Of a DNA stretch of 64,000 bases, positions 42,113 to 63,408 are shown one piece after another. A program made the position numbers and the translations under genes. The DNA is from Microbotryum silenes-acaulis. Taxonomy: Eukaryota; Basidiomycota; Microbotryomycetes; Microbotryales; Microbotryaceae. Position 1 is the stretch's first letter; each line of letters begins with the position of its first letter. The stretch is taken from the NCBI GenBank assembly GCA_003665825.1, contig QPFY01000009.1:930001-994000 (forward strand). The letters run 5' to 3'. The notes under the pieces are model-generated. The model saw nothing but the letters and a program-made list of their open reading frames with translations. It was not told the DNA's origin and did no database searches.

Positions 42113-43265
42113 TTGAAGGAAGGGGAATAGGTGGGTGAGCAGGAGGAGACTTTGGCCCATGGGCCATACGCGAGTGGAAAATGAGGGGAGATGGAGATAC
42201 ATGTCGAACCGGTCGAAGGAGTGGAACAACGTGAAGCGAGAGGAAGAGGGGGAAGCGCAGGTTTGACCGAACCTCGTGATGACAGCGCATCGTCCTTCGC
42301 GGCACTTGACCTCTCATTCCACATGGTGCACCCACGTGAGTCATGGTAGGGCCTGAGCCATTTGCCGAACCGGTGGAATGCAACCCTAGTGTCGCAGAAA
42401 TGTTCTCGAGTGGTAACTGATGATGACCACGACTCAGTCCAATGAATAGGGACGAGAACAGAGTGGCCAGAGACTAAGGGACAGACTCGCGGAAGGCTAG
42501 AAAGTGAAGCGTAAAGCTAATAAGGAGAGAGATTAGAGACTAGTAAAGTAGGGAGATTGAGTGACTAAGGAGAGAATGACACGCCGCTAGGCTCAATCCC
42601 AAGTACCATAACAGGAACAATAATCAGATGAAGGACGGGATAACCCATATGACCATATACGAATGACACCTAGGTCGTCGCGTGGTCAGGGGGCGACAGA
42701 AAGAGGGGTGCCATTTCAGCGAATGTTGGGGTCGGCTGATCAGTTTGGACCGTTTCGGGCCTGTACCTAATGGACCAGGTGAAAGGAAGACAAGTTAAGC
42801 TTGTTCCAGATGACCGGAGGAAGTATGGCGAGATGGAGCATCAATCTGTCAGAGAGATCACCCCTGTCTTGAGCTCAATCGCCACACTCTGCCGAATCGA
42901 CCGGGTCGAATTCGATCAGCGGGCGCCCCCGGGGGGGGGGGGGGGGGGGGGTCCAAATTTGTCGGACCGGCGATTCGAAACTCCAACGTCTCGAAAGGAT
43001 GAACCGGAAACAATTGCGTTAAGAATGGTTTGGGACAGGTCAGCTGAAAGAAAAACAGAGATCGCGCGTGCGTAAAGCGTCTGTATGGTGACCCACCCAT
43101 GACGTCAACGCTCAAGTCAGCCATGCTGGAGCTTTCCAAGATAAATGACCTGGTCCGAGCGCGCGCCCTGGCCAGCAGAGCCCTTTTGCCGCCCCTCCGC
43201 AACCTCTGAACCGCGATTAAACCCACATCGAACTGAGCTCATCCGCCACCGCCACCGCCACCACC
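42113..43265. other. Intergenic region with a G21 run
   Basis: About 1.15 kb with no supported gene. It contains CCCCC followed by 21 consecutive G at 42931-42951. Confidence 0.5.
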
Positions 43266-46178: not shown

Positions 46179-48216
46179 TCACCCGATCACATCCCTACAC
46201 CACCTCTCCCACCTCTCGAGTACATCCCTGACCCACAAATCATACGCCCCCTTCCCGACTTCAAACATTTCGATATGCCTTTGACCGCAATCCCCACATG
46301 GAGGAGAACCCTTCCCCCCTTCGCTCTTGCCTTGGTTCGAGCACAAGGCCATCATCTTTGCTCTTCCCGCCACTTCGATCAACACCAACCTTTCCCACCG
46401 ATGATGGTTCGGCGCCCCTCGTTCGGCGAAATGCATCGTCGCTCCGACGGGCCTTGGTGTAAAGTTCGCTCGGGGCAATACGTCCCTTACGATCGGTCTT
46501 CGAGAAGGGCATTGGTCCTTCCATTGTGAGAGACGCGAGAGCGGTTTGACGGAGCGACCGATCTTGAGGTAGGTCGTGGAGGTGGTGCTGGACGTGGGGG
46601 GGAATTCATGGACGTAGAGGTAGCTGTTTCGCTCCGAAGGGGGATGGAACTCAAAAATTGTTAGTGAGGGCACGATCGTACGATGATTTAAAATCTACCA
46701 CGTACCCTTCCGAATCCATCCCCGAAACCGCATTCGCCATCTCACTCCTCAATAACACTTTCGTTCTCTCGTCCAAATCACTTAAAATCCAATCCGCATA
46801 CTCGACCCAATGTTCCCCGCCCCTCGTTTTCGACAAAACAAAACACCCCGGTTCCGAAAGGGACGTTTTGAGATGTTGGTGGCAGTAGGAAGCGAGATAA
46901 AGATCGTGTAAAGGACCAGGGGAGGAGAGGTCGCCCGAGGTGGATTCGACCATGCGCGTGCAGCGCTTATTCGAGGTCGTTGTGCCGCTACATTGGACAC
47001 GAGGTTTGCTGGATGAAGTAGAGGTAGGAGTGTAAGCCTTGGAGGTGCCCGACCGCCGCTGAGCTGATGAAGGTGTCTTGGTCGGGGTCACGTTCTCCCT
47101 TCCCGGATTCGAAGTAGGCGAGACAATCTTCTGGGTCGGCGCCTCGATCGGTTTGTCGGCCAGTCGCTTGGGTTTGATGCCCGCTGAAGCCGGCGGTAAA
47201 GTCGTAGCCTCGATCCCAGCGCTTTTAGGAAATGCACCCGGAAGCTGAGGTGTGATATTCCTACTGCGATCTTGACCACTCGGATGGAAAAGTTGCATCG
47301 ACCCAGGTCGACCCGGCCCGATCTCGGCTCCGGCTCCTCCTCGATCGGGAAGGCCAGCAGGTAGTTGAGGAGAGGGCGGCACGGTCTGACGAAATGGATC
47401 GGGGCCTCTAGGTGGAGAAGGCAAACTCGCTTTAGGATCGAGCGGGATCGCTTGTGGGTACAGTGTCAAAGTGGGTCGAGGAGGTGCCGAGCCTGTGGAT
47501 GAAGGCGGAGGATACAAATTCCTCGGTGGTATCGGGGGAGGTCCGGTAGGGGTAGAAGAATGGTACGAGTGCTGAGAAGGCCTCGAGGGGAGATAGGATC
47601 CCGAGGCCGGATTTTGGACATTATCTCTCCAAGATGAGGGGTGAATCTTCCCTGGAACAGTCCTCACGGACTGCTGAGGCAAACCCGAGGTCGAAGCCGA
47701 GATTGCCGGCATGCTCGAGGAGCTTGGAGGTCTCGGCAATGGTGGCCTATTCGACGTTCTTGGAGGTGTGGCGAGTGTCGGTGGCGTTTGGTACGACCAA
47801 CACATGTCCCTTTCCGAATCGAGTCGAACGGTGCTCATTTGATGACACATCATGTTGCCGATCGCAGCGAGGTCCGGTGTGCTTGCCGAAGGGACGACGG
47901 GTGGATACGTTCGAGTCTGCAATTGTAGAGGGCTGCTATTGCTCGAGGCTGAGGCGTAGTGGGACCATGCTCGGGATTCACCGAGGTTGCGTGGGCCAAA
48001 ACCAGAGGCGTAAGGTCGAGAGGATGTGGACTCGGTGTTGGGTGCCCACACTGGACGTGACGAAGGCGGCGCATAGTAGGTTGCTGTCGTCGGGTTCGGG
48101 CTGGTGGTGTTGGAGTAGGACGAGGAGGAGGGCGAAGAGGGTGACGGTGACAAGGTAGAGGTTGGAGAATCACGCTTCGAGTGATTGGTCCTGAATAAGT
48201 TCTTGAAGGCTCCCAT
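46179..48216 (-). CDS. T5orf172 (DUF1766)-domain protein with long disordered N-terminus
   Basis: Exons 48216-46702 and 46649-46179; 661 aa. Residues 1-380 are Pro/Ser-rich and probably disordered. A Cys/His segment follows (V-Q-C-S-G-T-T-T-S-N-K-R-C-T-R ... Y-C-H-Q-H-L). The C-terminal domain has S-Y-L-Y-V-H-E-F, Y-L-K-I-G-R-S-V-K-P-L-S-R-L-x-Q-W and Q-C, matching the T5orf172 family, a GIY-YIG-like fold common in fungal proteins of unknown role. A Cys pair and H-I-E-M-F-E-V lie near the end. The intron (52 bp) is near the short end of the range; an alternative donor 4 bp upstream breaks the frame. Start ATG 48216 gives M-G-A-F-K-N-L-F. Confidence 0.82.
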
Positions 48217-48630: not shown

Positions 48631-49655
48631 CTACTTTCCTCTCAACAAATCACAAATCCCATCCAACCCCTTCGCAACTCCATCAACCTTACCCCCCTCC
48701 TTCCACCCTCTGACCCCTTCCTTACCCGCCTCAAAGTCCTCAATAGCCTGATTATCCTCCGTCTCCCTCGGTACGTAAATCGTCCTCAACCCAAAACTCT
48801 TCGCCGCTCGACAATCCTGAATATGCGCCGCGACCATCGCCACCTTCCCTGGCTCCAAGTCCAACTTTTTACATGCCCCCAAATACATCGCCGGGTTGGG
48901 CTTGTACGAATTCAACAAGTCGCCGGAGAAGATGAAATCCCAATCGAGTTGAGCATGTTTGGCGACGTCAATCAAGAGACGGGCAGAACCGTTGGAGAGG
49001 GTACCTTTCAGGATTCGACGGTCGGCGAAGGATCCGAGGGAGCTGAGACCGGGGGACGAGTCGCGCCATCCGTCGAGGTTGTGCCAGAAGAGGTTGACGG
49101 TGGTTAAAGCGGCTTCATCCCATGCTTTTTGGAGAGGGGCGTATTGCGCTTGCTTGAGGAGGTCGTCGAGTAGCTGTGGCATAGGAGTCAGAGGTAAGCC
49201 GAGGGAACCATCAGATGATGTCGTTTCGGTCGGCAAAGAAATGTGGGGCTCACCTCGCGGTGCAGTTGGTCGACATTCGTAGGGCCCGGAGCCCCACCGG
49301 CGATCTCCCGACTGACGGATGAGGTACAGACTGTCAGTAATCATGATTTGTCTCCCGTGTACTGTCAGGAGAGGGTCTCCGCAAGCTCACGTGCGGCGCA
49401 TATAGCCAGCCCTCCACTGCTTGGTGAATTGCAGCAAGTCGATCGAGCCGAGCTCTGCCCAGGCATTCCTGCAGCACATTAGCGACCCCGACGCTCTACG
49501 GTCGTTGTGAAAAAGAAGCTTCACACCGACTAACCGATCCCGTCCTGCTTGACGCGTTCTTGCAATTGTCGATGCACCGATCCTTGCCAATCGACGACCG
49601 TCCCAAAGACGTCGAACAACAGCGCCTCGACGCCCAACAGAGGGGAAGTGCTCAT
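48631..49655 (-). CDS. Haloacid dehalogenase-like hydrolase, type II (2-haloacid dehalogenase family)
   Basis: Exons 49655-49535, 49493-49391, 49311-49254 and 49173-48631; 274 aa. HAD motif I is L-L-F-D-V-F-G-T-V-V-D-W with the nucleophile Asp. A W-R-A-G-Y block and V-D-Q-L-H-R-E follow. Motif II is in L-S-N-G-S, and the Lys of motif III is in S-Y-K-P-N-P-A-M-Y. Motif IV is replaced by V-A-A-H-I-Q-D-C-R-A-A, with H-x2-D in place of the usual N-x-x-D of this subgroup. The family hydrolyses 2-haloacids or related small acids; the real substrate is unknown. The first intron (41 bp, GTTAGT ... GTAGAG) is the shortest in the window. It was chosen because it is the only acceptor that preserves frame, so residues 41-50 are less certain. 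Confidence 0.85.
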
Positions 49656-50101
49656 CCTCGCAATGGCTAGTGGGATCGGTGGCACTAGGCTTGATTGGAG
49701 TGGTAGCACTATGCTCGACTCTTGAAGAAGAGTCTCAGGGCTAGCGCCGGTAAAAGTGCGGTAGTCGGAATTGAGGAGGGGTCTGGAACGATGAAGGGAA
49801 CTCTTAGCCCGGAGGCCGCAAGCTTCGGTAATCAGTCAGTGCCGATTAGCGGCCGGACCCGACGAGCATGCGCCCGGGGCGCCGCAACTAGCGCAAAATG
49901 TCGAATTTGCCTGCTGAGGGAGATGGAGTACACAATGCTGGAAATGACGATGCATGAGATACACTGACTTTACACGTGGCATAGGGGGAGGAAAAATACG
50001 TGGCAAATGTTACCAAGAGGCCGCGTCATCTTGCTCGACGAGGTTTGTCTAACCCAGCTTGGACCAAGTGTACACACTCTTTCGGAGACGGAATCGCTCA
50101 C
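49656..50101. promoter_or_regulatory. Upstream region of the HAD gene up to the inverted repeat
   Basis: 446 bp; no defined element. The left arm of the large inverted repeat begins at its right edge. Confidence 0.4.
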
Positions 50102-50325
50102 TCGATCGGCGCGCCGAACAGGGTATGAGGGTGGAACGCTACCAGAGGTTCGGATGAATTGCATGGTGATCATGGTGTAAGACTAAGGATACAAGGGTGT
50201 TGATGGCTGATTTTTAAGGCTACAAAACCCGCAGTGTGAACGTGCACAGGAGGGGGACCCAGGAGGACTCGGAAAGGAGCGAGAAGAAGGAAGAGGGAAA
50301 AGACCACCGCACTGGAGTGGTGGAT

Positions 50326-52475
50326 TTATGAGCAGGGCATGCCGTTGACCTGGCAGGACTGGTCATCGAGGGTGAGGTCGTAACAGGTGTTGCCCTGATC
50401 GGTCGGGACCGAGGCCTGGTTCGCGGCGCAGGTCTCGATCACGAACACGCTCGCGCCGTCGACGTCGGTGATCGAAGAGAGGATCGGGTCCGTCGCGTTG
50501 GCGGCGTAGCAGTTGCCCTCGACGGGGTCGAATGCACCCATCGTCAGGTTCGAGGCGTAGATGGCCTCAGCGCAGTCGTACTGGTCCGCCGAGTCGGTGT
50601 TGAGCACGGAGAGCGAAGCGACCATCGAGTCGGGGTAGTACGACCAGGCCGTGTCGACGGCCGAAGCGGGAGCGGAGGTGTCGACGACGCAGGCGTTGTC
50701 AGAGAGGACCCAGCCGTTGTTGCAGTCGTTGACGGTGCCGTTGGCGGCGCAGCTGGCGGCGTTGGGGTCAAAGGTCGAGCAGGACGAGCAAGTACCGTTG
50801 TTGAGGAAGTCACCGTCGATGCAGGTCGTCGCACCGTTGAAGAGGTCGCACGTAAGCGAGTCCTGGTAGGTCGAGGCGCAGTTTTGGCAGATTCCGTCTG
50901 AGGGGGCAGCAGCAGGTGGAAGTGAGGGTCAGTCAAGGGTGCGAGTTTTGATAAGGTGCGTCAACACAGATAGGGACTGACTGAAGTTTCGGAATTGCGA
51001 TCCGGTGCAGCTGGTGAGGAGGGTCGAGCAAGCGGACTTGTCGGCGGTCAAGGTGCACGACGAGGCGGTGAGGGTCACATCGCGGCAGCGAGCCTTGGCA
51101 CTGGGAACGAGCGCGTTGTTGGTCTTGCACGAGCCGAGGACCATGACGGTCGAATCAGCGTCCCAGGCGAGCTTGGGCACAGCCGTGGTCGCGGGCGACG
51201 AGGTGGAGAAGCACGTCAACGAGCTCGTGTCAAAGACGGCGACCTGCGAGCCCTTGCTGACGGCGCCGCGACCGCAGATGATCGGAGTCTGGACGTTCGA
51301 GTCGTACGAGACATCGGGGATCGACGACGCAAGGTAGTAGGACCAGGCCGAACCGAGCACGCAGGACTTCTTGTCGGCCGAGACGGTGTACGGCGCCGTG
51401 CAGGCGGTGACGACTGTGGCGCTGGTGCAAGTCGTGGCGAACGAGTTGACGGACGTGCAAGCAATGCAGTCATTTTGGCCCGAGTTGAGTTTCAGCTGTG
51501 GGTGAATCAAGCGAAGAAGCAAAACAAAATGTCAGGACGCGATCGTCGTAGCGCGGTATCAGAAGCGCGCCGCCAGCCAGCCAGAACTCACGTAGGCTCC
51601 CGAATTGCAGGTCGCGATCTTGCCGGCGGTGCAGGTCGCGGCGAGGTTGTCGAATCGGTTGCAAGTGACGCAGGTGCGGGTGCTGGGAGCGTTGACGAAT
51701 CCGGTGGAGCAGACGCTCGCGCACTTGCCGGCAGAGAGGAAACCGGTGTTGCTGCGAAGGGGTAGCAAAGCGGGCCGGGTCAGCCTCGGAGAGCGCGTCA
51801 GGGGATGCGCGCGCCCGCGAGGGCCGGGAGCGGGCTCGCCGGCCACCCGAGAACAGACTCACCATTTGGTAGCGGCGGAGAAAGAGCATGTTGCGGCTCC
51901 GGGGAATTTGGACGTGCAGGCCGTGCAGACATTGTTGTTGTTGAATGTACTTGCGGGGCAAGTTGTCACGCCTGAGAGAGAGAGATGAGTGGAAGGGTGC
52001 GAAGAGCGCGGAGCAAAAGTCAGCTCTCCGAGATATAGGGGGCCTGGTGCAACCACGCGGGCGACGCGCTGGAAGCCGAGTTTTCAAGAAACGTACAAGC
52101 TCCGTTGGAGAGGGAACCAGTGGCGCTGCAATACAGAGAGAGAGAGAGAAGGGGGGGGGGGGGGGAGTGACTTAGTTAGTAAGTGGGAAAATTTGACAAT
52201 GTCCAAGCTCCACCATCAGCTCTTCTGCCACCGCGGACTCACCATCGCAAGGCCGCAGTCGCCGTGCAGGTCGAGGCGCCGGGGAACTTCCATGAGCAAG
52301 GCTTGCAGACGTTGCTCTGGGGCAAGGGGTATTGGCCGGTACCACGGCAAGTAGTGATCTTTTGACGGCGCTGGATGCTCCTGCCTTGGGGGGCATGGAT
52401 GGCGGCGGCGTCGGCGACCGAGGTCAAGGACACGACGGCGAGCACCGAGGCGACGGCGGAGGAGAGCATGAGCAT
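50326..52475 (-). CDS. Cysteine-rich secreted protein, copy B
   Basis: Mirror image of copy D. Exons 52475-52243, 52125-52097, 51971-51863, 51751-51592, 51495-50982 and 50897-50326; 538 aa. A signal peptide (S-S-A-V-A-S-V-L-A-V-V-S-L-T-S-V-A-D-A) is followed by a K/R-rich spot (R-S-I-Q-R-R-Q). Two short Cys repeats of form C-x2-C-S/T-x-K-F-P-G-A come next, then a C-V-T-C-N-R-F unit and two longer modules. Each module begins A-W-S-Y-Y and ends with a C-x-D-x-T-L-x-x-x-S-C pattern. The protein differs from copy D by at least one residue (Ser instead of Pro in S-V-C-S-T-G-F). The high, evenly spaced Cys content suggests a disulfide-rich cell-surface or matrix protein. The function is unknown and no GPI or C-terminal membrane signal is visible. 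Confidence 0.88.
52151..52165 (+). repeat. G15 tract in the first intron of copy B
   Basis: Fifteen G next to a GA repeat. The matching tract in the right arm (58057-58067) has eleven C. This is the only length difference found between the two arms. Confidence 0.9.
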
Positions 52476-53016
52476 GGTGGGTGGAAGCGAGGGGGCGAGG
52501 AGGCAAGGAGGAGCACGGGGACCGGGAGCAAGGTGGGGAAAGAGGAGTGGAGCTGTGAGTGGGAAGAGGGAGAGAGGTGAGGCCGACATGGCGGTCGCTT
52601 TAATACTTGCCCCCGACGAGGGGGGGGCGACGACGACGGGGAGGGTCAGGCGGCCCAACGAGTTGGGCCTACCGACCCTCGGCGTCGTTCCGACGTGGAG
52701 ATCCGACGCGACTTGCCCGTTTCGATGCACCAAAATCCTCCCCATCGCATCCAACGCAAATTTTAAATTCCAAAGCGGATGCCAAGCCGGGACACTGCAC
52801 CATATTTGTCTTCAACCTCGACCCGGTTCAGCGTCGGGTCCAAGTCGGCGGCACCACGGATCGACGCGACAGGGATGGTCCTGCTTGTAAGCGGAAGGAT
52901 TTCGACGACTTGGGACGAGCCACACTAGTAACTCTAGGCGGAAGCGTGTGGCCTGCCGTCGGCCACGCGAGACGCACGCGCGCGCGCGCGGGAGACAGAT
53001 CGAAACCGCGTCCGGA

Positions 53017-54599
53017 ATCCGGGCATCTCTTTGAGCCGTCCGCCCGGGCCGCCTGACCCCGCCAAACTGGGCCACGGGGGCCACAGGGAGGTGGAAATAG
53101 AGTTGTCGGTGCCTGGGGACGGCACGCAAGGCACCTGCCGATCACGACTAGCCACCCCCCACCTCGGTGCAGAGACCATCCAAAAAACAGTGTAAGGTAG
53201 GCAGGGGGCGTACCGACCTACAGGCGCTCCCTCCCGTTGCTAAGGATCGTGCATCTCCCATTAGGAAGGTCCCTAAAGGGGCTTTGCTGGAGAGTCGGGC
53301 CACCGTGGCCCGCCTGATCTGCCCCCGGGTTGCAACGTCCACCCTCCTTGCATGAGGCAAGTTGGTCCGCAGCCATACGGGGAATCGGGAAGCCAGCTTG
53401 TGTTTTCGTGTTCAGGCTCTCATAGTATTGCAAGAAATGCGTTGAGCAATGGCTTTGACCGCGTCGTTGACTCCTGCAGCGCGAGAGGGACCGATGAAAA
53501 TTCGCGATCAAATTCTTCGAACTTGCCACACCTACCTGCTTATTTCACCCACCATATCGCGATGGATAAATTGACTGGCCTGCGCCCGCACGGAGGCGGG
53601 CGATCCGGACCGGCCCCGACTGAAGCCTGACTGCCTGACCCCCTACCGAAAAGGTTCCGACGGATCCGGTCGCGCGTCAACCATCGTCGACATCGAACTC
53701 GAGATCCCAGAATCAGCAGAACTCAGGCCGATTTAGCGAAATTCAGGCGGACTCGGTATGGTAAAATCCAGGAATTTGAAAGTGCCTGAAACGTGCAGAA
53801 GGTTTCTCTCTACGTCGCGAGACTTGAGATCGACGGGGCCTCCTCGAGTGCCTGAAAAGGTGGGGGAGGTGGGTATCGCCCCTCTTCGGATAATACCTAC
53901 GACTCGATGACGAACCTGTGGCGCTATATCAGGTTCGGGAACATTCCGCGTATCGAGAACCCAGGTAGATACCAACGCGCCCCTTGCAGCCGGCAATACG
54001 TGTTCGCGGCCGGTCAGTAGCAAAGGGGTGCCGCCCCATAGCAAAACTGGTGGCCAGGCTCAGTGCGGCACCACGCAGCTTCTTACGATGATCGAAATGC
54101 TCGATAAACATCATGTAGCCGTATCGCTCCAGATGAGGCTATGGGGATCGCACCTGCCTCAGATTCACATCGCCTGGCAGCTCTCACGGTCTGGTCGTTG
54201 TGCTGTGCACAGCGCCTCGAAGTCGTTGTTTCAATAGTAGGACGTTGTGTATCGCGACGAAGAACTGGACAAGCTTTAGTAGAACTTAAATCATATTTGG
54301 ATTCTATACCCTTCGCTAGCCAACAACCTCTGGAAAGGCAGGTCTCTTTGTAAGGATGTAAGGTCATCAGAAGTCGCCCCTTTGAAGCGAGCCTAGAATC
54401 TGACGAGCAATAGTAGTTGATAATAAACTTGATGAGGTTTTCAGTATTTCAGGAGAATAGGTTGCTAAAACAGATGTTGGGTAAGGCTACATGGGGTTGC
54501 GTAAGGGCTACAGTATCGCTTGGTGCGACTGAGAGCTGACGGAGAATGCAGAACGCCATCAGGGGAACGTCAGAAGCAGGCAGCGCCAGTAATTCGAAA
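53017..54599. other. Spacer between inverted arms, left part, no gene recognised
   Basis: About 1.6 kb from the inner end of the left arm to the end of copy C. Open frames are short and none matches a family I know. Composition shifts toward AT after about 54200. Confidence 0.4.
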
Positions 54600-56683
54600 T
54601 CAGCTATCATCAGTAACGATTTCGTAGCAGTTGGATTCTGAAGCAGCCGAGGAATAATGCATAAAGATGAAGTGAGCGTCTGGTCTCAATGGGATCGCGC
54701 GGACTCCCGGAACTCACCCACTGTCCGGTTGGTGGTAGCGCAGGGTGTGATCAGGTAGACGCTCGCCCCGACCGAGTCCGTTTCCGAGCCGGTGAGCGTA
54801 CGGGTGGCATTGTTGGCCCAGCAAATCTTGCCTGAGGCGTCGTAAGCCCCCAAGGTATAGTTGGCCACGAGCACATCGTCGGCACAAGCGAACTGATCGC
54901 TTGCGTTGCGGCTCACGACCGGAAGGCCTTGGATAGTGGAATTGAAGTAGAACGACCACACTGTCTCGGCATTCTGACCAGATGAGGTCGTGTCAACGAC
55001 GCAGGTATTGTTCGATAGGACCCATCCGGCGTTGCAGCCTCCGAGGTTTCCGTTGCTCGAGCATTCGGAAGCGTTCGGATCGAAAACGGCGCACGAGCTG
55101 CATGTTCCGTTGACGAGGAATGTGCCGTCGATGCAGGACGTCGCACCGTCGAATAGATCGCAGGTCCTGGATTCACTGTAAGCCGTGTCGCATTCTTGAC
55201 ATACCCCGTCTTTATCCGCAAAAGGAGATCATCAGGTTAAGATTTTTTGTTAGAGAATGTGTGTGAGCATGCAAGCAGATTCCTCGAAAAACTTACTGAA
55301 GTTGCGGAACTGGGACCCCAAGCAGGGAGTCGAAAGAGAGGAGCAAGAAGCTCTGTTCGCCAAGGTGCACGACGTTGGGGTAAGAGTGACGTCGCGACAG
55401 CGCGCCCTCGCCGCGCGAGCGATGAGGTTGTTCGTTTTGCACGTGCCGTAGACGAGAACCGTCGAGTCGGCATCCCAGATCAAGTTGGGAAGTAGCGAGG
55501 CCCCAGAAGTCGAAGTGGCAAAGCAAGTCAATGAACTGGTATCAAACACGGCAACTTGCGACCCTTCCCCGACGGCGTTTCGCCCGCAGATGGTGGATGT
55601 TTGAACGTTAGACTCATAAGGGACGTCGGGGATCGACGCAGCGAGGTAGTAGGACCAAGTTGACGCAAGGACACAGGATCTCTTGTCGGACAATACCATG
55701 TACGGTGCAATGCATGCGGTGACCACGGTCGCGCTAGAGCAAGTGGAAGCAAAGTCGTTGACGGAGTTGCAAGGCACACATGAATTTTGCTTGGAATCGA
55801 GCTGCAAAGACAGGTATCGCTCGTGTAAATCTTCGCGAGGCGCTAGTTGCTCACCGAGCGCTCCTGATGGGGTGCGACTCACATATGCTCCCGACTTGCA
55901 GGTTGCAATCTTGCCGGCGGTGCAGGTCGCGGCGAGGTTGTCGAATCGGTTGCAAGTGACGCAGGTTCGGGTGCTGGGAGCGTTGACGAATCCGGCGGAG
56001 CAGACACTCGAGCATTTGCCTCCAGAAAGGTATCCGATGGTGCTGCGCAGAAGTGCCGGCACATGTATAGGTCAGCTTGAGCCTCTTGGGGGACCGAATA
56101 CCTCCCCAATCATATTCACCACTTTGTGGCTGCATTCGCATCACAAGTTGCGGCCCCAGGGAATTTGCTTGAGCACGGCAAACACGCTCCGTTGCCAATA
56201 AATGTACTGGCGGGGCACCTCGTCACGCCTGAGCAGGCCGGAGGAGCAGGTTTGATTAGTCACACTTGCGCATATACGAAGTGAGGAGGCAGCCATGGGA
56301 TTCAGCATACGCACAAAGGCCATTCCAGAGATATCCAGTCGCACTGCATACGTTACAAGCCGTTTCAACGGACGATTTTGGGCATCCCCGTAGCTCCGAC
56401 CGCGGTCTCTAAAGTCCAGGCGCTGACCCACTCACCATCGCAGCGCCGCCGTAGCCGAACAGACCGAAGCGCCGGGAAACTTCCACGAGCAAGGCTTGCA
56501 GACGTTTTTTTGCGGTAGAGGGTATTGACCTGTACCACGGCAAGTCGTAACCCTTGCTGTTGCCCGACGTACTACAGCCATTCGTTGTGGCACAATGGCA
56601 GCCGTTTCAACAGCAACGGTGAACGAAAGCAGGAGGAGCACCGCGGCGGCGGCGGTATTAACAGACCGCACTGGAGTCCGCAT
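54600..56683 (-). CDS. Cysteine-rich secreted protein, copy C (diverged, shortened C-terminus)
   Basis: Lies in the spacer of the inverted repeat. Exons 56683-56436, 56343-56315, 56228-56120, 56042-55883, 55801-55297, 55209-54718 and 54637-54600; 526 aa. The three internal exons are again 29, 109 and 160 nt. The signal peptide is A-A-A-A-V-L-L-L-L-S-F-T-V-A-V-E-T-A-A, followed by the same Cys repeats (C-K-P-C-S-W-K-F-P-G-A-S-V-C). Unlike B and D it has an extra intron near the end. The last exon stops at TGA (54600-54602), exactly where B and D have a Cys codon in D-D-Q-S-C; the frame beyond remains alignable for ten more residues, including a final Cys. So the last disulfide pair is probably lost. 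The other residues diverge moderately, so it is not part of the recent duplication. Confidence 0.85.
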
Positions 56684-57746
56684 GATGAAGGCGTGGACAC
56701 GCGGATCGGCGTCGACGAAGACGTCGTATCGGCGCGTCCCAATTGCGGTGATGATGGACGATGAACAGTCAGAGACTTGAGGTGGGGAGCCGTGATGCCT
56801 TGTGTTGGGTGGTGCAGTATCGCCGAGAGCGCCCTCAGTTCCTCCGGCCCCGCACCTAGTTTCGCGTTGGCGAGGTCCAAGTGGGAGGGAGTCGCGACGG
56901 GTGAAACTCCGAGAACGACCGTGTCCGAGTGGATCAACTTTGAGGTGCAAGTTGTAGTTGATGGACCTCGGACGGCATAGCAAGGGTACGACAAGGACCC
57001 TAGTCGGTGCGCACCGCCGGCGGGGCGTTCTAACGAAGGGCCTCGGCGATTTGGACCTCGAAGCTTGTTGGGTGATCTCAGGCGCTGATGTGCGCGAAAG
57101 GAAGCACGGCGGCCGGCGGAGGAGCTGCCGAAGCGCGGCCTTGCCCTTCCTGCCAAGGACTGGGTTGGCCCTCGTTCGCCAGGCGCGCAAGGGCGCAGGG
57201 CCCCCTCCGGACGCGGTTTCGATCTGTCTCCCGCGCGCGCGCGCGTGCGTCTCGCGTGGCCGACGGCAGGCCACACGCTTCCGCCTAGAGTTACTAGTGT
57301 GGCTCGTCCCAAGTCGTCGAAATCCTTCCGCTTACAAGCAGGACCATCCCTGTCGCGTCGATCCGTGGTGCCGCCGACTTGGACCCGACGCTGAACCGGG
57401 TCGAGGTTGAAGACAAATATGGTGCAGTGTCCCGGCTTGGCATCCGCTTTGGAATTTAAAATTTGCGTTGGATGCGATGGGGAGGATTTTGGTGCATCGA
57501 AACGGGCAAGTCGCGTCGGATCTCCACGTCGGAACGACGCCGAGGGTCGGTAGGCCCAACTCGTTGGGCCGCCTGACCCTCCCCGTCGTCGTCGCCCCCC
57601 CCTCGTCGGGGGCAAGTATTAAAGCGACCGCCATGTCGGCCTCACCTCTCTCCCTCTTCCCACTCACAGCTCCACTCCTCTTTCCCCACCTTGCTCCCGG
57701 TCCCCGTGCTCCTCCTTGCCTCCTCGCCCCCTCGCTTCCACCCACC
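56684..57746. promoter_or_regulatory. Shared upstream region of copies C and D
   Basis: 1063 bp between two diverging start codons. The right half (from 57206) belongs to the inverted arm and is therefore also upstream of copy B; the left half is unique. It contains a (GC)n run near 57231-57245 and a C/T-rich stretch before the copy D start. Confidence 0.55.
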
Positions 57747-60116
57747 ATGCTCATGCTCTCCTCCGCCGTCGCCTCGGTGCTCGCCGTCGTGTCCTTGACC
57801 TCGGTCGCCGACGCCGCCGCCATCCATGCCCCCCAAGGCAGGAGCATCCAGCGCCGTCAAAAGATCACTACTTGCCGTGGTACCGGCCAATACCCCTTGC
57901 CCCAGAGCAACGTCTGCAAGCCTTGCTCATGGAAGTTCCCCGGCGCCTCGACCTGCACGGCGACTGCGGCCTTGCGATGGTGAGTCCGCGGTGGCAGAAG
58001 AGCTGATGGTGGAGCTTGGACATTGTCAAATTTTCCCACTTACTAACTAAGTCACTCCCCCCCCCCCTTCTCTCTCTCTCTCTGTATTGCAGCGCCACTG
58101 GTTCCCTCTCCAACGGAGCTTGTACGTTTCTTGAAAACTCGGCTTCCAGCGCGTCGCCCGCGTGGTTGCACCAGGCCCCCTATATCTCGGAGAGCTGACT
58201 TTTGCTCCGCGCTCTTCGCACCCTTCCACTCATCTCTCTCTCTCAGGCGTGACAACTTGCCCCGCAAGTACATTCAACAACAACAATGTCTGCACGGCCT
58301 GCACGTCCAAATTCCCCGGAGCCGCAACATGCTCTTTCTCCGCCGCTACCAAATGGTGAGTCTGTTCTCGGGTGGCCGGCGAGCCCGCTCCCGGCCCTCG
58401 CGGGCGCGCGCATCCCCTGACGCGCTCTCCGAGGCTGACCCGGCCCGCTTTGCTACCCCTTCGCAGCAACACCGGTTTCCTCTCTGCCGGCAAGTGCGCG
58501 AGCGTCTGCCCCACCGGATTCGTCAACGCTCCCAGCACCCGCACCTGCGTCACTTGCAACCGATTCGACAACCTCGCCGCGACCTGCACCGCCGGCAAGA
58601 TCGCGACCTGCAATTCGGGAGCCTACGTGAGTTCTGGCTGGCTGGCGGCGCGCTTCTGATACCGCGCTACGACGATCGCGTCCTGACATTTTGTTTTGCT
58701 TCTTCGCTTGATTCACCCACAGCTGAAACTCAACTCGGGCCAAAATGACTGCATTGCTTGCACGTCCGTCAACTCGTTCGCCACGACTTGCACCAGCGCC
58801 ACAGTCGTCACCGCCTGCACGGCGCCGTACACCGTCTCGGCCGACAAGAAGTCCTGCGTGCTCGGTTCGGCCTGGTCCTACTACCTTGCGTCGTCGATCC
58901 CCGATGTCTCGTACGACTCGAACGTCCAGACTCCGATCATCTGCGGTCGCGGCGCCGTCAGCAAGGGCTCGCAGGTCGCCGTCTTTGACACGAGCTCGTT
59001 GACGTGCTTCTCCACCTCGTCGCCCGCGACCACGGCTGTGCCCAAGCTCGCCTGGGACGCTGATTCGACCGTCATGGTCCTCGGCTCGTGCAAGACCAAC
59101 AACGCGCTCGTTCCCAGTGCCAAGGCTCGCTGCCGCGATGTGACCCTCACCGCCTCGTCGTGCACCTTGACCGCCGACAAGTCCGCTTGCTCGACCCTCC
59201 TCACCAGCTGCACCGGATCGCAATTCCGAAACTTCAGTCAGTCCCTATCTGTGTTGACGCACCTTATCAAAACTCGCACCCTTGACTGACCCTCACTTCC
59301 ACCTGCTGCTGCCCCCTCAGACGGAATCTGCCAAAACTGCGCCTCGACCTACCAGGACTCGCTTACGTGCGACCTCTTCAACGGTGCGACGACCTGCATC
59401 GACGGTGACTTCCTCAACAACGGTACTTGCTCGTCCTGCTCGACCTTTGACCCCAACGCCGCCAGCTGCGCCGCCAACGGCACCGTCAACGACTGCAACA
59501 ACGGCTGGGTCCTCTCTGACAACGCCTGCGTCGTCGACACCTCCGCTCCCGCTTCGGCCGTCGACACGGCCTGGTCGTACTACCCCGACTCGATGGTCGC
59601 TTCGCTCTCCGTGCTCAACACCGACTCGGCGGACCAGTACGACTGCGCTGAGGCCATCTACGCCTCGAACCTGACGATGGGTGCATTCGACCCCGTCGAG
59701 GGCAACTGCTACGCCGCCAACGCGACGGACCCGATCCTCTCTTCGATCACCGACGTCGACGGCGCGAGCGTGTTCGTGATCGAGACCTGCGCCGCGAACC
59801 AGGCCTCGGTCCCGACCGATCAGGGCAACACCTGTTACGACCTCACCCTCGATGACCAGTCCTGCCAGGTCAACGGCATGCCCTGCTCATAAATCCACCA
59901 CTCCAGTGCGGTGGTCTTTTCCCTCTTCCTTCTTCTCGCTCCTTTCCGAGTCCTCCTGGGTCCCCCTCCTGTGCACGTTCACACTGCGGGTTTTGTAGCC
60001 TTAAAAATCAGCCATCAACACCCTTGTATCCTTAGTCTTACACCATGATCACCATGCAATTCATCCGAACCTCTGGTAGCGTTCCACCCTCATACCCTGT
60101 TCGGCGCGCCGATCGA
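57206..60116 (+). repeat. Right arm of the 2.9-kb inverted duplication
   Basis: Reverse complement of 50102-53016. The inner boundary is sharp: both arms share GCGTCCGGA, after which they differ. At the outer end similarity fades just past GGCGCGCCGATCGA (about 60110-60124). Confidence 0.93.
57747..59892 (+). CDS. Cysteine-rich secreted protein, copy D
   Basis: Reference member of the family here. Exons 57747-57979, 58093-58121, 58247-58355, 58467-58626, 58723-59236 and 59321-59892; 538 aa, all GT-AG, phases consistent. Introns 1, 3 and the one before exon 4 each split a Cys codon (TG|C), so every short Cys repeat is bounded by an intron. Residues 1-25 are a signal peptide. Two C-terminal modules start with W-S-Y-Y at about residues 228 and 433 and share spacing. 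Each ends in C-x2-N-x-A-x-V-P, then C-x-D-x-T-L, then S-C-x6-C-S, which points to an internal duplication. N-x-S/T sites are present. No catalytic motif, GPI signal or membrane helix after the leader is visible. Confidence 0.88.
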
Positions 60117-60432
60117 GGGAGCACCTGAGACCCGGAGAATGCCGAGCGTGTGAGCGACAGAAGGCCTCGAGTGACCCCCACTGTGAGGCCTTTGACAAGG
60201 AAACCCGAACTTGCTCTCGTTTCTCGGATAACTGTACCATGGGGGGAACACAGGAAATTGGATTGCAGACGTCATTCGATCCCCCTATCGCCTCGAACGA
60301 GGGGACCGTGCGCGCGAAACCCGCTCCTCAAAGGGCAGATCGCAGGCTGGGACTCGACTTCTCACTGCTACTCCCATGCTGCGGCGCCTTAGGCTCGACG
60401 GTGCGCGCCGATCACCGCCTGGTCCCGTCAAA
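60117..60432. promoter_or_regulatory. Upstream region of KAR5
   Basis: 316 bp between the outer end of the right arm and the KAR5 start. No element recognised. Confidence 0.4.
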
Positions 60433-63408
60433 ATGCTTCATATACGTCGCCTGAGGATCCTCGAGGATCTTGTATTCCTGCTCATCATCCTCTCGACGCT
60501 TCCAACACCCAATCTCGCATGGCCGCGCCGGTCGTCATTGGGTCGCAACGCTGCCACGACTGTCCCAAGGCCGGACTCGCTCGTTCAGCCGCTTGAGGCC
60601 GTCGGACTGCCTTCATCCAGATCCACATGTGATGCTCCAGCCCACCCGGCAGCCGATTTCGAGCGACAGAACGAGGAGATTCGTGGTGGGTGGTGCGCCT
60701 CTCTGTTGGGGATTAGCTCATGCATGCTCATCGTCAACCTACTCGCCGGTGTCACGCGCTAGCGGCCTTGCTGCGGAGACTCTCCTATTTCAAAGAAGCT
60801 TCTGGCGCCCCACATTCCTCCCCGCTTGAACTCCGAAAGGAGGCCCAGGATTTTAGTGAATCAGCATATCGCTTTGAACAGCAAGGTTAGCTCATTGAGT
60901 ATGAGTCTAGCTGCTATTTACCACAGGCTGCGTAACTGACCGCAGTCTGATCTTGCTCCAGCAGACGAATCGGCCCTGCTCAGTCGCGATCGATCATGCT
61001 TTTCGCAAGCTCTGCCGTCAGGCGCATCGTCCTGTCAGAGTCTAGCAGGATCTTCACCCCATTTAAACGAGCTGAGAGTCAAGACGGCGATCAAGATGGC
61101 ACTCTGCGAGATCAGGACGTCACGGTCGACCCGGGGCCCGAAGGAGTGTCAACCGTTTGAGGCTGGCGCCAATGAATCGAACGCAGGCGAAGAGCCTGAT
61201 CCGAGTAGCTGCGTTGAGCAAGTCCCCCTTTTGTTCATTTTCTTCGACATACACACCAACTAATCTATCTTGGGGCCCACAGAGCCCTATCGCGCAGTCC
61301 ACAATACTGGAGCTCCTATTCTGGGTATCTGCGAGAGATCGGTTGGTGCTGCTCCATATAAACACATCGGTTGCCTGCTGAAGGTGACGCCATCTACCTA
61401 TAGTGATCTTGTGTTCGGCGTATCGCCGCTGGGAAGATTCAGGTCAGTCCGAAAGACACACAATACGTAAGCCGCAATAGAGATCTCATGCCTCCAGTAG
61501 TGCAGAAACGGCCCGAGAATTACACCAGTCTACCGCGACACGGCTAGCAGTTTTTGTCCAGCAGCTTCAGGATCTCGAGCTCGTCAAGAAGGAAGGGATG
61601 GCCACTGAGTCCGAGCAACGAGCCAGAGCCTTTCAAGTCGGTCGGCGCTGTGCAAGACAAGCTTGTGTTCTGAATGAACCAGCCTAAGGATGAATTCCCT
61701 TCTTCGTATTGCAGGATATCTCCCATCACATCACTTCGAGCCTGGAACCTTTGTTCGCAGCTTTCCGGACCAATGGTGCTGCACAACTCGACTCATTTGC
61801 GCTGCTTCGGTCGGAGTTGTTGCACTTGATCCAATCCATTGAACCGATCGTGTCTCGCTCTCTGGAAGGGACACTACAAGATATGTCGCATATGCTCAAG
61901 GATGTCACACTGGAACACCGGAACCAGCTCGAGAAGGTCTTCCAGAATACGGTAGCGCGGGTAAGAAAAACCGACTGGGGCCTACTGTCGAAAGTACAAA
62001 TCAGCACAAATCCAACGCTACCTTACTCCTGAAAGACAACCCAGGAGCTCGATCACTCACTGCTGGCGGTACATGATGCGATTGAGACTTCAATTGCAGC
62101 TCTCAACCAGTCGTCTAGCCAAATCGTCAAAGAGATGGTGGGTCTTTACGCAGCCGTGAAAGCGGGAGAGCACGTCGCTAATGCGAACTTTCCAGCTGGC
62201 AATGTCTTCCACTGTCGCTTCCAGTGGACGGGTAATTCGGCGTATGGAGAGAGTGAGCGATACTGTTTGCTTCAAAGATAAGTATCTCATCTTTATTGAT
62301 GGTGGCTTCGTTGCACAGACCATTCTTGGCCTTTCAGATGCTGCGGAACAGCTTGGCTCCTCGCTTTCGACGTCCCTCGAACTGGCCTTGAGGTCGCAGG
62401 TCTGAAGAACACGCCGCAAAGAGATGCAGGTTGATTACACAGGGCTAATTAAGATACTTTGTTATTCTAGGATTTACAAGCAAGCAACCTCGAAGGACTT
62501 CAAAGAGACGTATCTGTGCTGTCCGAGGCCGTGACAAACCTGACGCTGCGCACGCGACCCAAGCTGCTCTCAAAGAATCTCGGATGGCTGGTAGCTCTGG
62601 CCAGTCGGCTACGTTTCGATCCGGAGGATTTTGTCATCGCCACCATGAGTGGTCAGTACCTCTTACCTCTTAGCCGATCCGGTGTGTGCTGGAAAGCCAA
62701 CTGCTGACGCCGCTACATGTGTCGGCACCCCCCCGCCCCCCCCTTGCCCAAAGCGCTGCTTCGTCTTCTGGGCGTGTGGAAAGCTGGGATCGCCGTGATG
62801 ACCATGGCTTGCATTATTGGCATCGCACAATGTGATTGGCTTCCGACTTCCGTGAGTGCTGGTTTTCCTTTTCATCCAAGTCATCTACTTTCGAGCTGAG
62901 ATAAAGGTTCACGCAGCTGCTCATGCGAGTGGTTGGATCGATTGCTGGCGCTGGTGCATTGGTGCGGATGATCGGCATCTTGGTCACCCAGATCAGGAAG
63001 AGAAGGGCGGCGGTTCAAGACTCCCAGTGAGTCATTGTCTCTTTGAGACTGTGCTCCTCTGGTATTGGCGCTGAAGGGACCTTCAGCGGAGCTAGACGCC
63101 CACTCGCCAGCGGCAGAAGTCCGACAAGCTTGCCGATGTCCGAACTGGCGCTCGAAGCAAGTCGATTCGCACTTTCCAATCCACCGTCCCATCTTCGCGC
63201 GGGCATTGGATCCTTTACTCGACCGAGGCGTATGCGTTGCATTGAGTCAAATAGAGCCGCAAGAGGATGGCCAGCTTTCGTATCGGCCGAATCGTACGGG
63301 ACGTGGGCGGCGGGTGGTCCGAGTTGGCACCACCGCGGCGCCGAGTTCAGACAGTCGGAGCTGGACGCCGAGCCAGTCGACGAAGCTTGTGATGGGGCAT
63401 GTGTTTGA
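60433..63408 (+). CDS. KAR5: Nuclear fusion (karyogamy) membrane protein, Kar5 type
   Basis: Kar5 (Tht1/Brambleberry/GEX1 group) acts in the nuclear envelope to fuse nuclei after mating. Exons: first from ATG 60433 (signal peptide V-F-L-L-I-I-L-S-T-L-P); second about 60717-60885, exon 1/2 junction unresolved; then 60962-61217, 61283-61341, 61404-61442, 61506-61636, 61715-61960, 62045-62137, 62196-62252, 62319-62399, 62471-62651, 62754-62851, 62917-63026 and 63087-63408. The Cys-rich N-terminal domain shows R-S-C-F-S-Q-A-L-P, I-K-M-A-L-C-E, K-E-C and S-C-V-E-A-L, then the signature S-R-S-P-Q-Y-W-S-S-Y-S-G-Y-L-R-E-I and C-S-A-Y-R-R-W-E-D. A long coiled-coil part follows, then two hydrophobic segments (A-V-M-T-M-A-C-I-I-G-I and V-G-S-I-A-G-A-G-A-L-V). 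The third intron has a GC donor. Expression is expected only at mating or meiosis, which would make annotation gaps likely. Confidence 0.82.

What the first reader, a model, noticed from the sequence alone, without database searches (positions are those of the whole stretch)
50102..60116. Near-perfect 2.9-kb inverted duplication carrying a complete secreted-protein gene in each arm
The two arms mirror each other base by base, apart from a poly-G length difference (15 against 11) and isolated substitutions such as one Ser/Pro codon. They lie 4.2 kb apart in inverted orientation. Such palindromes are unstable unless recent or kept alike by gene conversion, and they allow the spacer, with the start of gene C, to flip by recombination. 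Whole promoters are inside both arms, so B and D should be expressed alike.
Basis: seen in the sequence. Interest (0 to 1): 0.85.

Follow-up and report, generated by a model that had tools for sequence, protein, structure and literature searches.

The report
Inverted duplication of a smut-fungus secreted-protein gene
In an anther-smut fungus, a 2.9-kb stretch holding one whole secreted-type protein gene occurs twice in mirror orientation around a related gene, almost letter-perfect; it looks like a real, young (or recently re-copied) local gene duplication, an ordinary kind of event, in a cluster whose genes also seem to swap short pieces of sequence.

Summary
Arms 50101-53016 and 57206-60117 are inverted copies that differ by one substitution and one poly-C length (15 against 11). 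The flanking stretches searched were found once in the genome. The genome is a Microbotryum (anther smut). Each arm holds a complete six-exon, 538-aa cysteine-rich gene (B, D); the whole paralog C (54600-56683), not just its start, sits in the spacer. In M. saponariae, gene numbers HAD g08906, C g08909, D g08910+g08911 put the D copy where it is here; whether B exists there is unknown. Identity runs to the arm ends with no decayed homology beyond, favouring a young copy, most likely D copied into the B site. But C shares an 88-nt stretch with B/D at 87/88, against 49-80% in other 90-nt windows (0 of 5000 permutations): ectopic gene conversion. The only substitution between the arms lies 4 nt beyond it, and B carries C's base there. 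Both arm edges carry palindromes (post hoc). Transposon and RIP signatures were not found. Flipping of the spacer is untested. Known kind of event; moderate interest.

The parts
50101..53016 (-). left arm of the inverted duplication (2916 nt), carrying gene B
   Evidence: one substitution and one 4-nt poly-G difference from the right arm; no alignable sequence beyond the edges
57206..60117 (+). right arm (2912 nt), carrying gene D
   Evidence: a copy lies on the same side of C in M. saponariae by gene numbers
50326..52475 (-). gene B, 6 exons (52475-52243, 52125-52097, 51971-51863, 51751-51592, 51495-50982, 50897-50326), 538 aa, Ser where D has Pro
   Evidence: mirror of the D model; open frame read from the DNA
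57747..59892 (+). gene D, 6 exons (57747-57979, 58093-58121, 58247-58355, 58467-58626, 58723-59236, 59321-59892), 538 aa cysteine-rich protein with a hydrophobic N-terminus
   Evidence: model by GT-AG introns and comparison with paralogs; no RNA evidence
54600..56683 (-). gene C, paralog, 7 exons, 526 aa, wholly inside the spacer; 510/525 identical to MVLG_02675 and 494/526 to M. saponariae g08909
   Evidence: two splice choices for the micro-exon gave an open frame; the one with a 29-nt exon 56315-56343 is used
53017..57205 (.). spacer, 4189 nt; its parts outside gene C found once in the genome
51708..51708 (-). only substitution between the arms (B TCC Ser; D CCC Pro at 58510); gene C also has TCC, its three named orthologs have Pro
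52151..52165 (+). poly-G of 15 (poly-C in the pyrimidine tract of intron 1 of B); 11 in D at 58057-58067
55908..55995 (-). conversion tract in C (partners: B 51617-51704, D 58514-58601), 87 of 88 identical
50106..50117 (.). 12-nt perfect palindrome 5 nt inside the outer edge (mirror copy 60101-60112)
52977..52990 (.). 14-nt (CG)7 palindrome 26 nt inside the inner edge (mirror copy 57232-57245)
48631..49655 (-). left neighbour, HAD-type hydrolase; best hits M. saponariae g08906 and M. intermedium 5080

Best explanation
A genuine, young segmental inverted duplication in a cluster of paralogous secreted-type cysteine-rich protein genes of a Microbotryum species. The D locus (present next to C in M. 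saponariae) was most likely copied, with the sequence just upstream of the gene, into the site between the HAD gene and C in inverted orientation, giving B. The copy was probably made by a replication template switch at hairpin-prone sequence near both edges (inferred). The arms are too young to have diverged. Exchange between paralogs also goes on locally: C shares a converted tract with B/D, and B's single private base is the base of C. The likely effect is a doubled dose of a secreted protein with predicted furin-like repeats and two PAN/apple-like domains. Shown: structure, gene models as open frames, D position in M. saponariae by gene numbers, conversion tract by permutation. Inferred: direction of copying, mechanism, youth, dose effect, function.
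For: Arms identical to the last base at both edges, with no residual homology beyond: the flank alignment scores were reached by 157 of 200, 21 of 100, 198 of 200 and 99 of 100 shuffles. 1 substitution in 2912 aligned bases, while D differs from M. saponariae g08911 at 13 of 414 residues. In M. saponariae HAD is g08906, C g08909, and the D copy g08910 (N-terminal fragment, 76/80 identical) plus g08911. No third near-identical copy found and single-copy flanks. Palindromes of 12 nt or more within 40 nt of both ends: 0 of 119,427 overlapping 2916-nt segments outside the arms in 134 kb. Conversion tract C-D: longest run 18 polymorphic sites, reached by 0 of 5000 permutations; the five other paralog pairs gave p 0.23-0.40.
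Against: The protein cluster of g08911 stands for 6 distinct sequences, against 1 to 3 for those of A, C, C4 and HAD: a hint of more than one copy in relatives, hence of an older duplication. Two unseen gene models (g08907, g08908) lie between HAD and C in M. saponariae and could be B, split in two as D is there. The palindrome criterion was chosen after seeing the edges. Direction (B from D) rests on gene numbers only. On silent sites alone the conversion run gave p 0.06 (tolerant score 0.003), and in the tolerant test on all sites two other pairs reached 0.04 and 0.053.
Confidence: 0.52

Rival explanations
1. The inverted duplication is older than the split from M. saponariae and its arms are kept alike by repeated gene conversion, as in Y-chromosome-type palindromes.
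For: Ectopic conversion is detectable in the cluster. The g08911 protein cluster has 6 distinct members against 1 to 3 for neighbours and paralogs. HAD g08906 and C g08909 leave exactly two gene numbers, and the D copy is split into two models there, so B would fit.
Against: No decayed edge homology outside the arms. M. intermedium also has two numbers between HAD (5080) and C (5077), yet no B/D protein of it was returned, so the slots prove nothing. Cluster members could not be resolved into species.
Confidence: 0.4
2. Assembly artefact (fold-back chimera or mis-join).
For: No reads could be examined; the arms are nearly identical; the poly-C difference is of a kind that read errors produce, and the substitution could come from short reads of C mis-mapped during polishing.
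Against: Unique 4.2-kb spacer and flanks, position 980-990 kb of a 1.35-Mb contig, a geometry unlike a fold-back, and a D copy beside C in M. saponariae, listed with two contigs.
Confidence: 0.05
3. Both arms are copies of a transposable element, for example a gene-capturing rolling-circle element.
For: Helitrons are common in M. lychnidis-dioicae (PMC4469406, section 6 read); one arm end begins TC and the other has a near-terminal palindrome. That these are Helitron-like traits is recalled.
Against: Only two copies found in the genome; no CTRR end and no target duplication seen at the junctions printed; elsewhere only the gene part has relatives.
Confidence: 0.02

Closest known systems
Gene-conversion palindromes of sex chromosomes (human Y amplicons; recalled, with PMC3308322 seen only as a listing)
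   Same: Two near-identical inverted arms with genes, separated by a unique spacer; conversion in the neighbourhood
   Different: One small pair on a contig where no STE3 receptor hit lies; age and arm-to-arm conversion not shown
Tandem duplications in cysteine-rich secreted protein families of Microbotryum lychnidis-dioicae (PMC4469406, passages seen)
   Same: Clustered paralogs without a Pfam domain above cut-off, secreted type
   Different: Here one duplicate is inverted and virtually identical
Furin-like repeat proteins (R-spondin) and PAN/apple-domain proteins
   Same: Profile match of positions 52-156 to R-spondin-2 (E 5.7e-4); model regions 223-306 and 424-517 align with apple/PAN folds

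Membership tests
Gene-conversion palindrome | Inverted arms over 99.9% alike in substitutions, with a unique spacer | tested here: met
Gene-conversion palindrome | Duplication older than the arm divergence implies (arms shared with related species) | tested here: inconclusive
   D position shared with M. saponariae by gene numbers; B position not visible
Gene-conversion palindrome | Direct evidence of arm-to-arm conversion | not testable with these tools
   needs DNA of relatives or tetrads; only exchange between C and B/D is supported
Transposable element copies | Multiple copies with common ends, terminal repeats or target duplications | tested here: not met
RIP-mutated duplication | Excess of C-to-T products at TCG/CpG in the repeat | tested here: not met
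   (simple ratios, not the published index): arm CpG ratio 1.17 and TTG/TCG 0.60, against 1.08 and 0.65 for the window; the one presumed C-to-T change is not at CpG
Furin-like repeat / PAN proteins | Significant family match | tested here: inconclusive
Candidate plant-pathogen effector | Secretion signal, expression in planta, effect on host | not tested
   hydrophobic N-terminus seen by eye; no signal-peptide program, no expression data

The most novel reading that the evidence does not exclude
The locus is a long-lived conversion engine: an old inverted pair of secreted-protein genes, kept identical across several Microbotryum species, flanks a third paralog and trades sequence with it, with the spacer able to flip, so that new variants can be made and spread among three copies.
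Probability: 0.2. Interest if true: 0.6.

Novelty: new member of a known kind. Interest (0 to 1): 0.37.

Why it matters
If the duplication is old, it would be a compact fungal example of conversion-maintained inverted genes, in a genus used to study recombination. If young, it is a recent doubling of a secreted-type gene in a group where copy-number variation of secreted proteins was reported as limited (PMC6831777, abstract passage seen), and breakpoints at hairpin-prone sequence would point to how it arose.

Tried and rejected
Transposon origin: looked for more copies, end motifs and target duplications; none seen. RNA families in 46-64 kb: none at gathering score. RIP: no excess. Mating-type location: the 3 STE3 matches are on contig C6, not C9; the homeodomain locus was not searched. 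Species: window proteins differ from the M. saponariae, M. intermedium, M. silenes-dioicae and M. lychnidis-dioicae proteins compared, so no species is named. Background: in 164 kb of C9 the other inverted matches are the paralog pairs A-D and C-D at 68-82% and one 45-bp match; the rest of the genome was not scanned. Papers: searches listed no title or abstract reporting this structure; only open-licence PMC full text was searched, no supplements. The micro-conversion reading of the Ser codon is weak: B and C differ again 3 nt further on and 7 nt before, so a C-to-B tract could be at most 9 nt, paralog A has changed the same site on its own (Arg), and parallel mutation is possible. Two further poly tests (D-A, C-C4) were near 0.05 and are not taken as conversion.

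Full report
What was checked. In the 164 kb around it the other inverted matches are paralog pairs (A-D, C-D) at 68-82% identity and one 45-bp match. After trimming a chance match at the outer edge, the arms are 50101-53016 and 57206-60117. They differ at one base (51708 against 58510) and in a homopolymer (15 against 11) that lies in the pyrimidine tract of intron 1. The spacer is 4189 nt. Searches of the whole genome with stretches at all four junctions found the unique parts once; such counts are lower bounds by the tool's own note.

The genes. Splicing the right arm by GT-AG introns gives a 538-residue open frame in six exons, one of only 29 nt; the left arm gives the same with one Ser for Pro. 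Gene C, in the spacer on the minus strand, is a paralog with seven exons and 526 residues. Two further paralogs lie at the left window edge (A, C9 928.6-930.8 kb) and on contig C4 near 160 kb. No RNA data support these models; they rest on homology and open frames.

The organism. The named protein hits of D are all from Microbotryum species (8 of 12 hits are named). C is 510/525 identical to MVLG_02675 of M. lychnidis-dioicae and 494/526 to g08909 of M. saponariae. D is 401/414 identical to g08911 of M. saponariae, whose model lacks the first exons. A is 514/549 identical to one M. silenes-dioicae protein and C4 513/532 to another. None is identical, so this is a close but different species or a divergent strain. 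A tree puts D with g08911 (support 99/99), C4 with M. intermedium 1587 and a M. silenes-dioicae protein (87/97), and A and C each with their orthologs.

Position in a relative. The left neighbour, a HAD-type hydrolase, has M. saponariae g08906 as best hit. A search with the first exons returned one protein, a 98-residue g08910. So the numbers run HAD 06, C 09, D 10 and 11: the D copy is on the far side of C from HAD, as here. This assumes that gene numbers follow position. Gene models 07 and 08 between HAD and C were not seen. In M. intermedium HAD is 5080 and C 5077, again two numbers between, and no B/D protein of it was returned. The g08911 cluster stands for 6 distinct sequences, against 3 (A), 2 and 1 (C), 2 (C4) and 2 (HAD). 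That hints at more than one copy per genome in relatives, but members could not be listed.

Young or homogenised. Beyond the arm ends the flanks are no more alike than shuffles (157 of 200, 21 of 100, 198 of 200 and 99 of 100 shuffles reach the score), and the arms match to their last base. An old duplication, only partly homogenised, would be expected to leave decayed borders; conversion reaching the ends of homology would not. I therefore lean to a young duplication (0.52) over an old, converted one (0.40).

Exchange with gene C. In exon 4, C and B/D share 87 of 88 bases (C 55908-55995, B 51617-51704, D 58514-58601), against 49-80% in the 90-nt windows outside it, and 79-82% between D and C4 in the same windows. 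The longest run of shared polymorphic sites was reached by 0 of 5000 permutations; the other five pairs gave 0.23-0.40. On silent sites alone the unbroken run gave 0.06 and the mismatch-tolerant score 0.003; in the tolerant test on all sites D-A gave 0.04 and C-C4 0.053. The sole substitution between the arms lies 4 nt beyond the end of this tract. C has the same TCC Ser codon; D, C4 and the nine relatives whose sequence covers the site have Pro, and paralog A has Arg. That fits exchange between B and C, but a C-to-B tract could be at most 9 nt, and parallel mutation or mis-polishing with short reads of C cannot be excluded.

Edges. A perfect 12-nt palindrome lies 5 nt inside the outer edge and a 14-nt CG repeat 26 nt inside the inner edge. 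None of 119,427 overlapping 2916-nt segments outside the arms, in 134 kb of C9, has such palindromes within 40 nt of both ends; the product estimate is 8.5e-5. Only 805 sampled segments were as GC-rich as the arms (0 with either end). The criterion was set after the fact. It suits a replication switch at hairpins but does not prove it. No target duplication or transposon ends were seen.

Genome defence. M. lychnidis-dioicae shows RIP-like, CpG-biased mutation in repeats (PMC4469406, section 6 read; PMC10502011, passages). The arms show no such excess, which fits youth or exemption.

Protein. AlphaFold2 of the M. intermedium relative P0001, with 10 relatives, gave pLDDT 72 and pTM 0.36. Residues 63-172 resemble R-spondin furin-like repeats, and 223-306 and 424-517 apple/PAN domains; no Foldseek match reached E 0.001 and all Z are below 8. 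Twenty cysteine columns are invariant in 11 sequences. A secreted binding protein is a reasonable guess; a role in infection is untested.

Flipping of the spacer would turn all of C with 522 nt upstream; no evidence bears on it. B and D share 541 nt upstream of the start codon, but D faces the upstream of C across 1063 nt and B faces C's 3' end, so equal expression is open.

Noticed in passing
L009-L011 (C9:883463-900415 and 907956-908937): A 17-kb array of a 146-bp satellite (about 115 copies) and a small second array, the unit also found on contig C7: centromere-like, about 70-80 kb from the duplication.
   Followed up: partly
C9:909440-915083 (L011-L012) and C9:1021173-1023363 (L016); window 42417-42669: Pairs of direct repeats, 297 bp (100%) and 358 bp (99.7%), look like LTR elements; a 253-bp 98% relative of the second lies in the window.
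   Followed up: no
window 57206-57746 and C4:162100-162640 (L021): The upstream of D is more like that of the C4 paralog than any of 200 shuffles (score 26, highest shuffle 17), unlike the upstreams of C and A.
   Followed up: partly
window 58093-58121 and 56315-56343: A 29-nt micro-exon shared by D and C (and by the models of A and C4); M. saponariae annotation splits the D gene into g08910 and g08911, apparently for lack of it.
   Followed up: yes
window 46179-46673 (-): ORF with a T5orf172/MUG113 domain.
   Followed up: no
window 60950-63040 (+): A coding-looking multi-exon stretch right of arm D; one exon piece (61709-62032) has no Pfam match.
   Followed up: no
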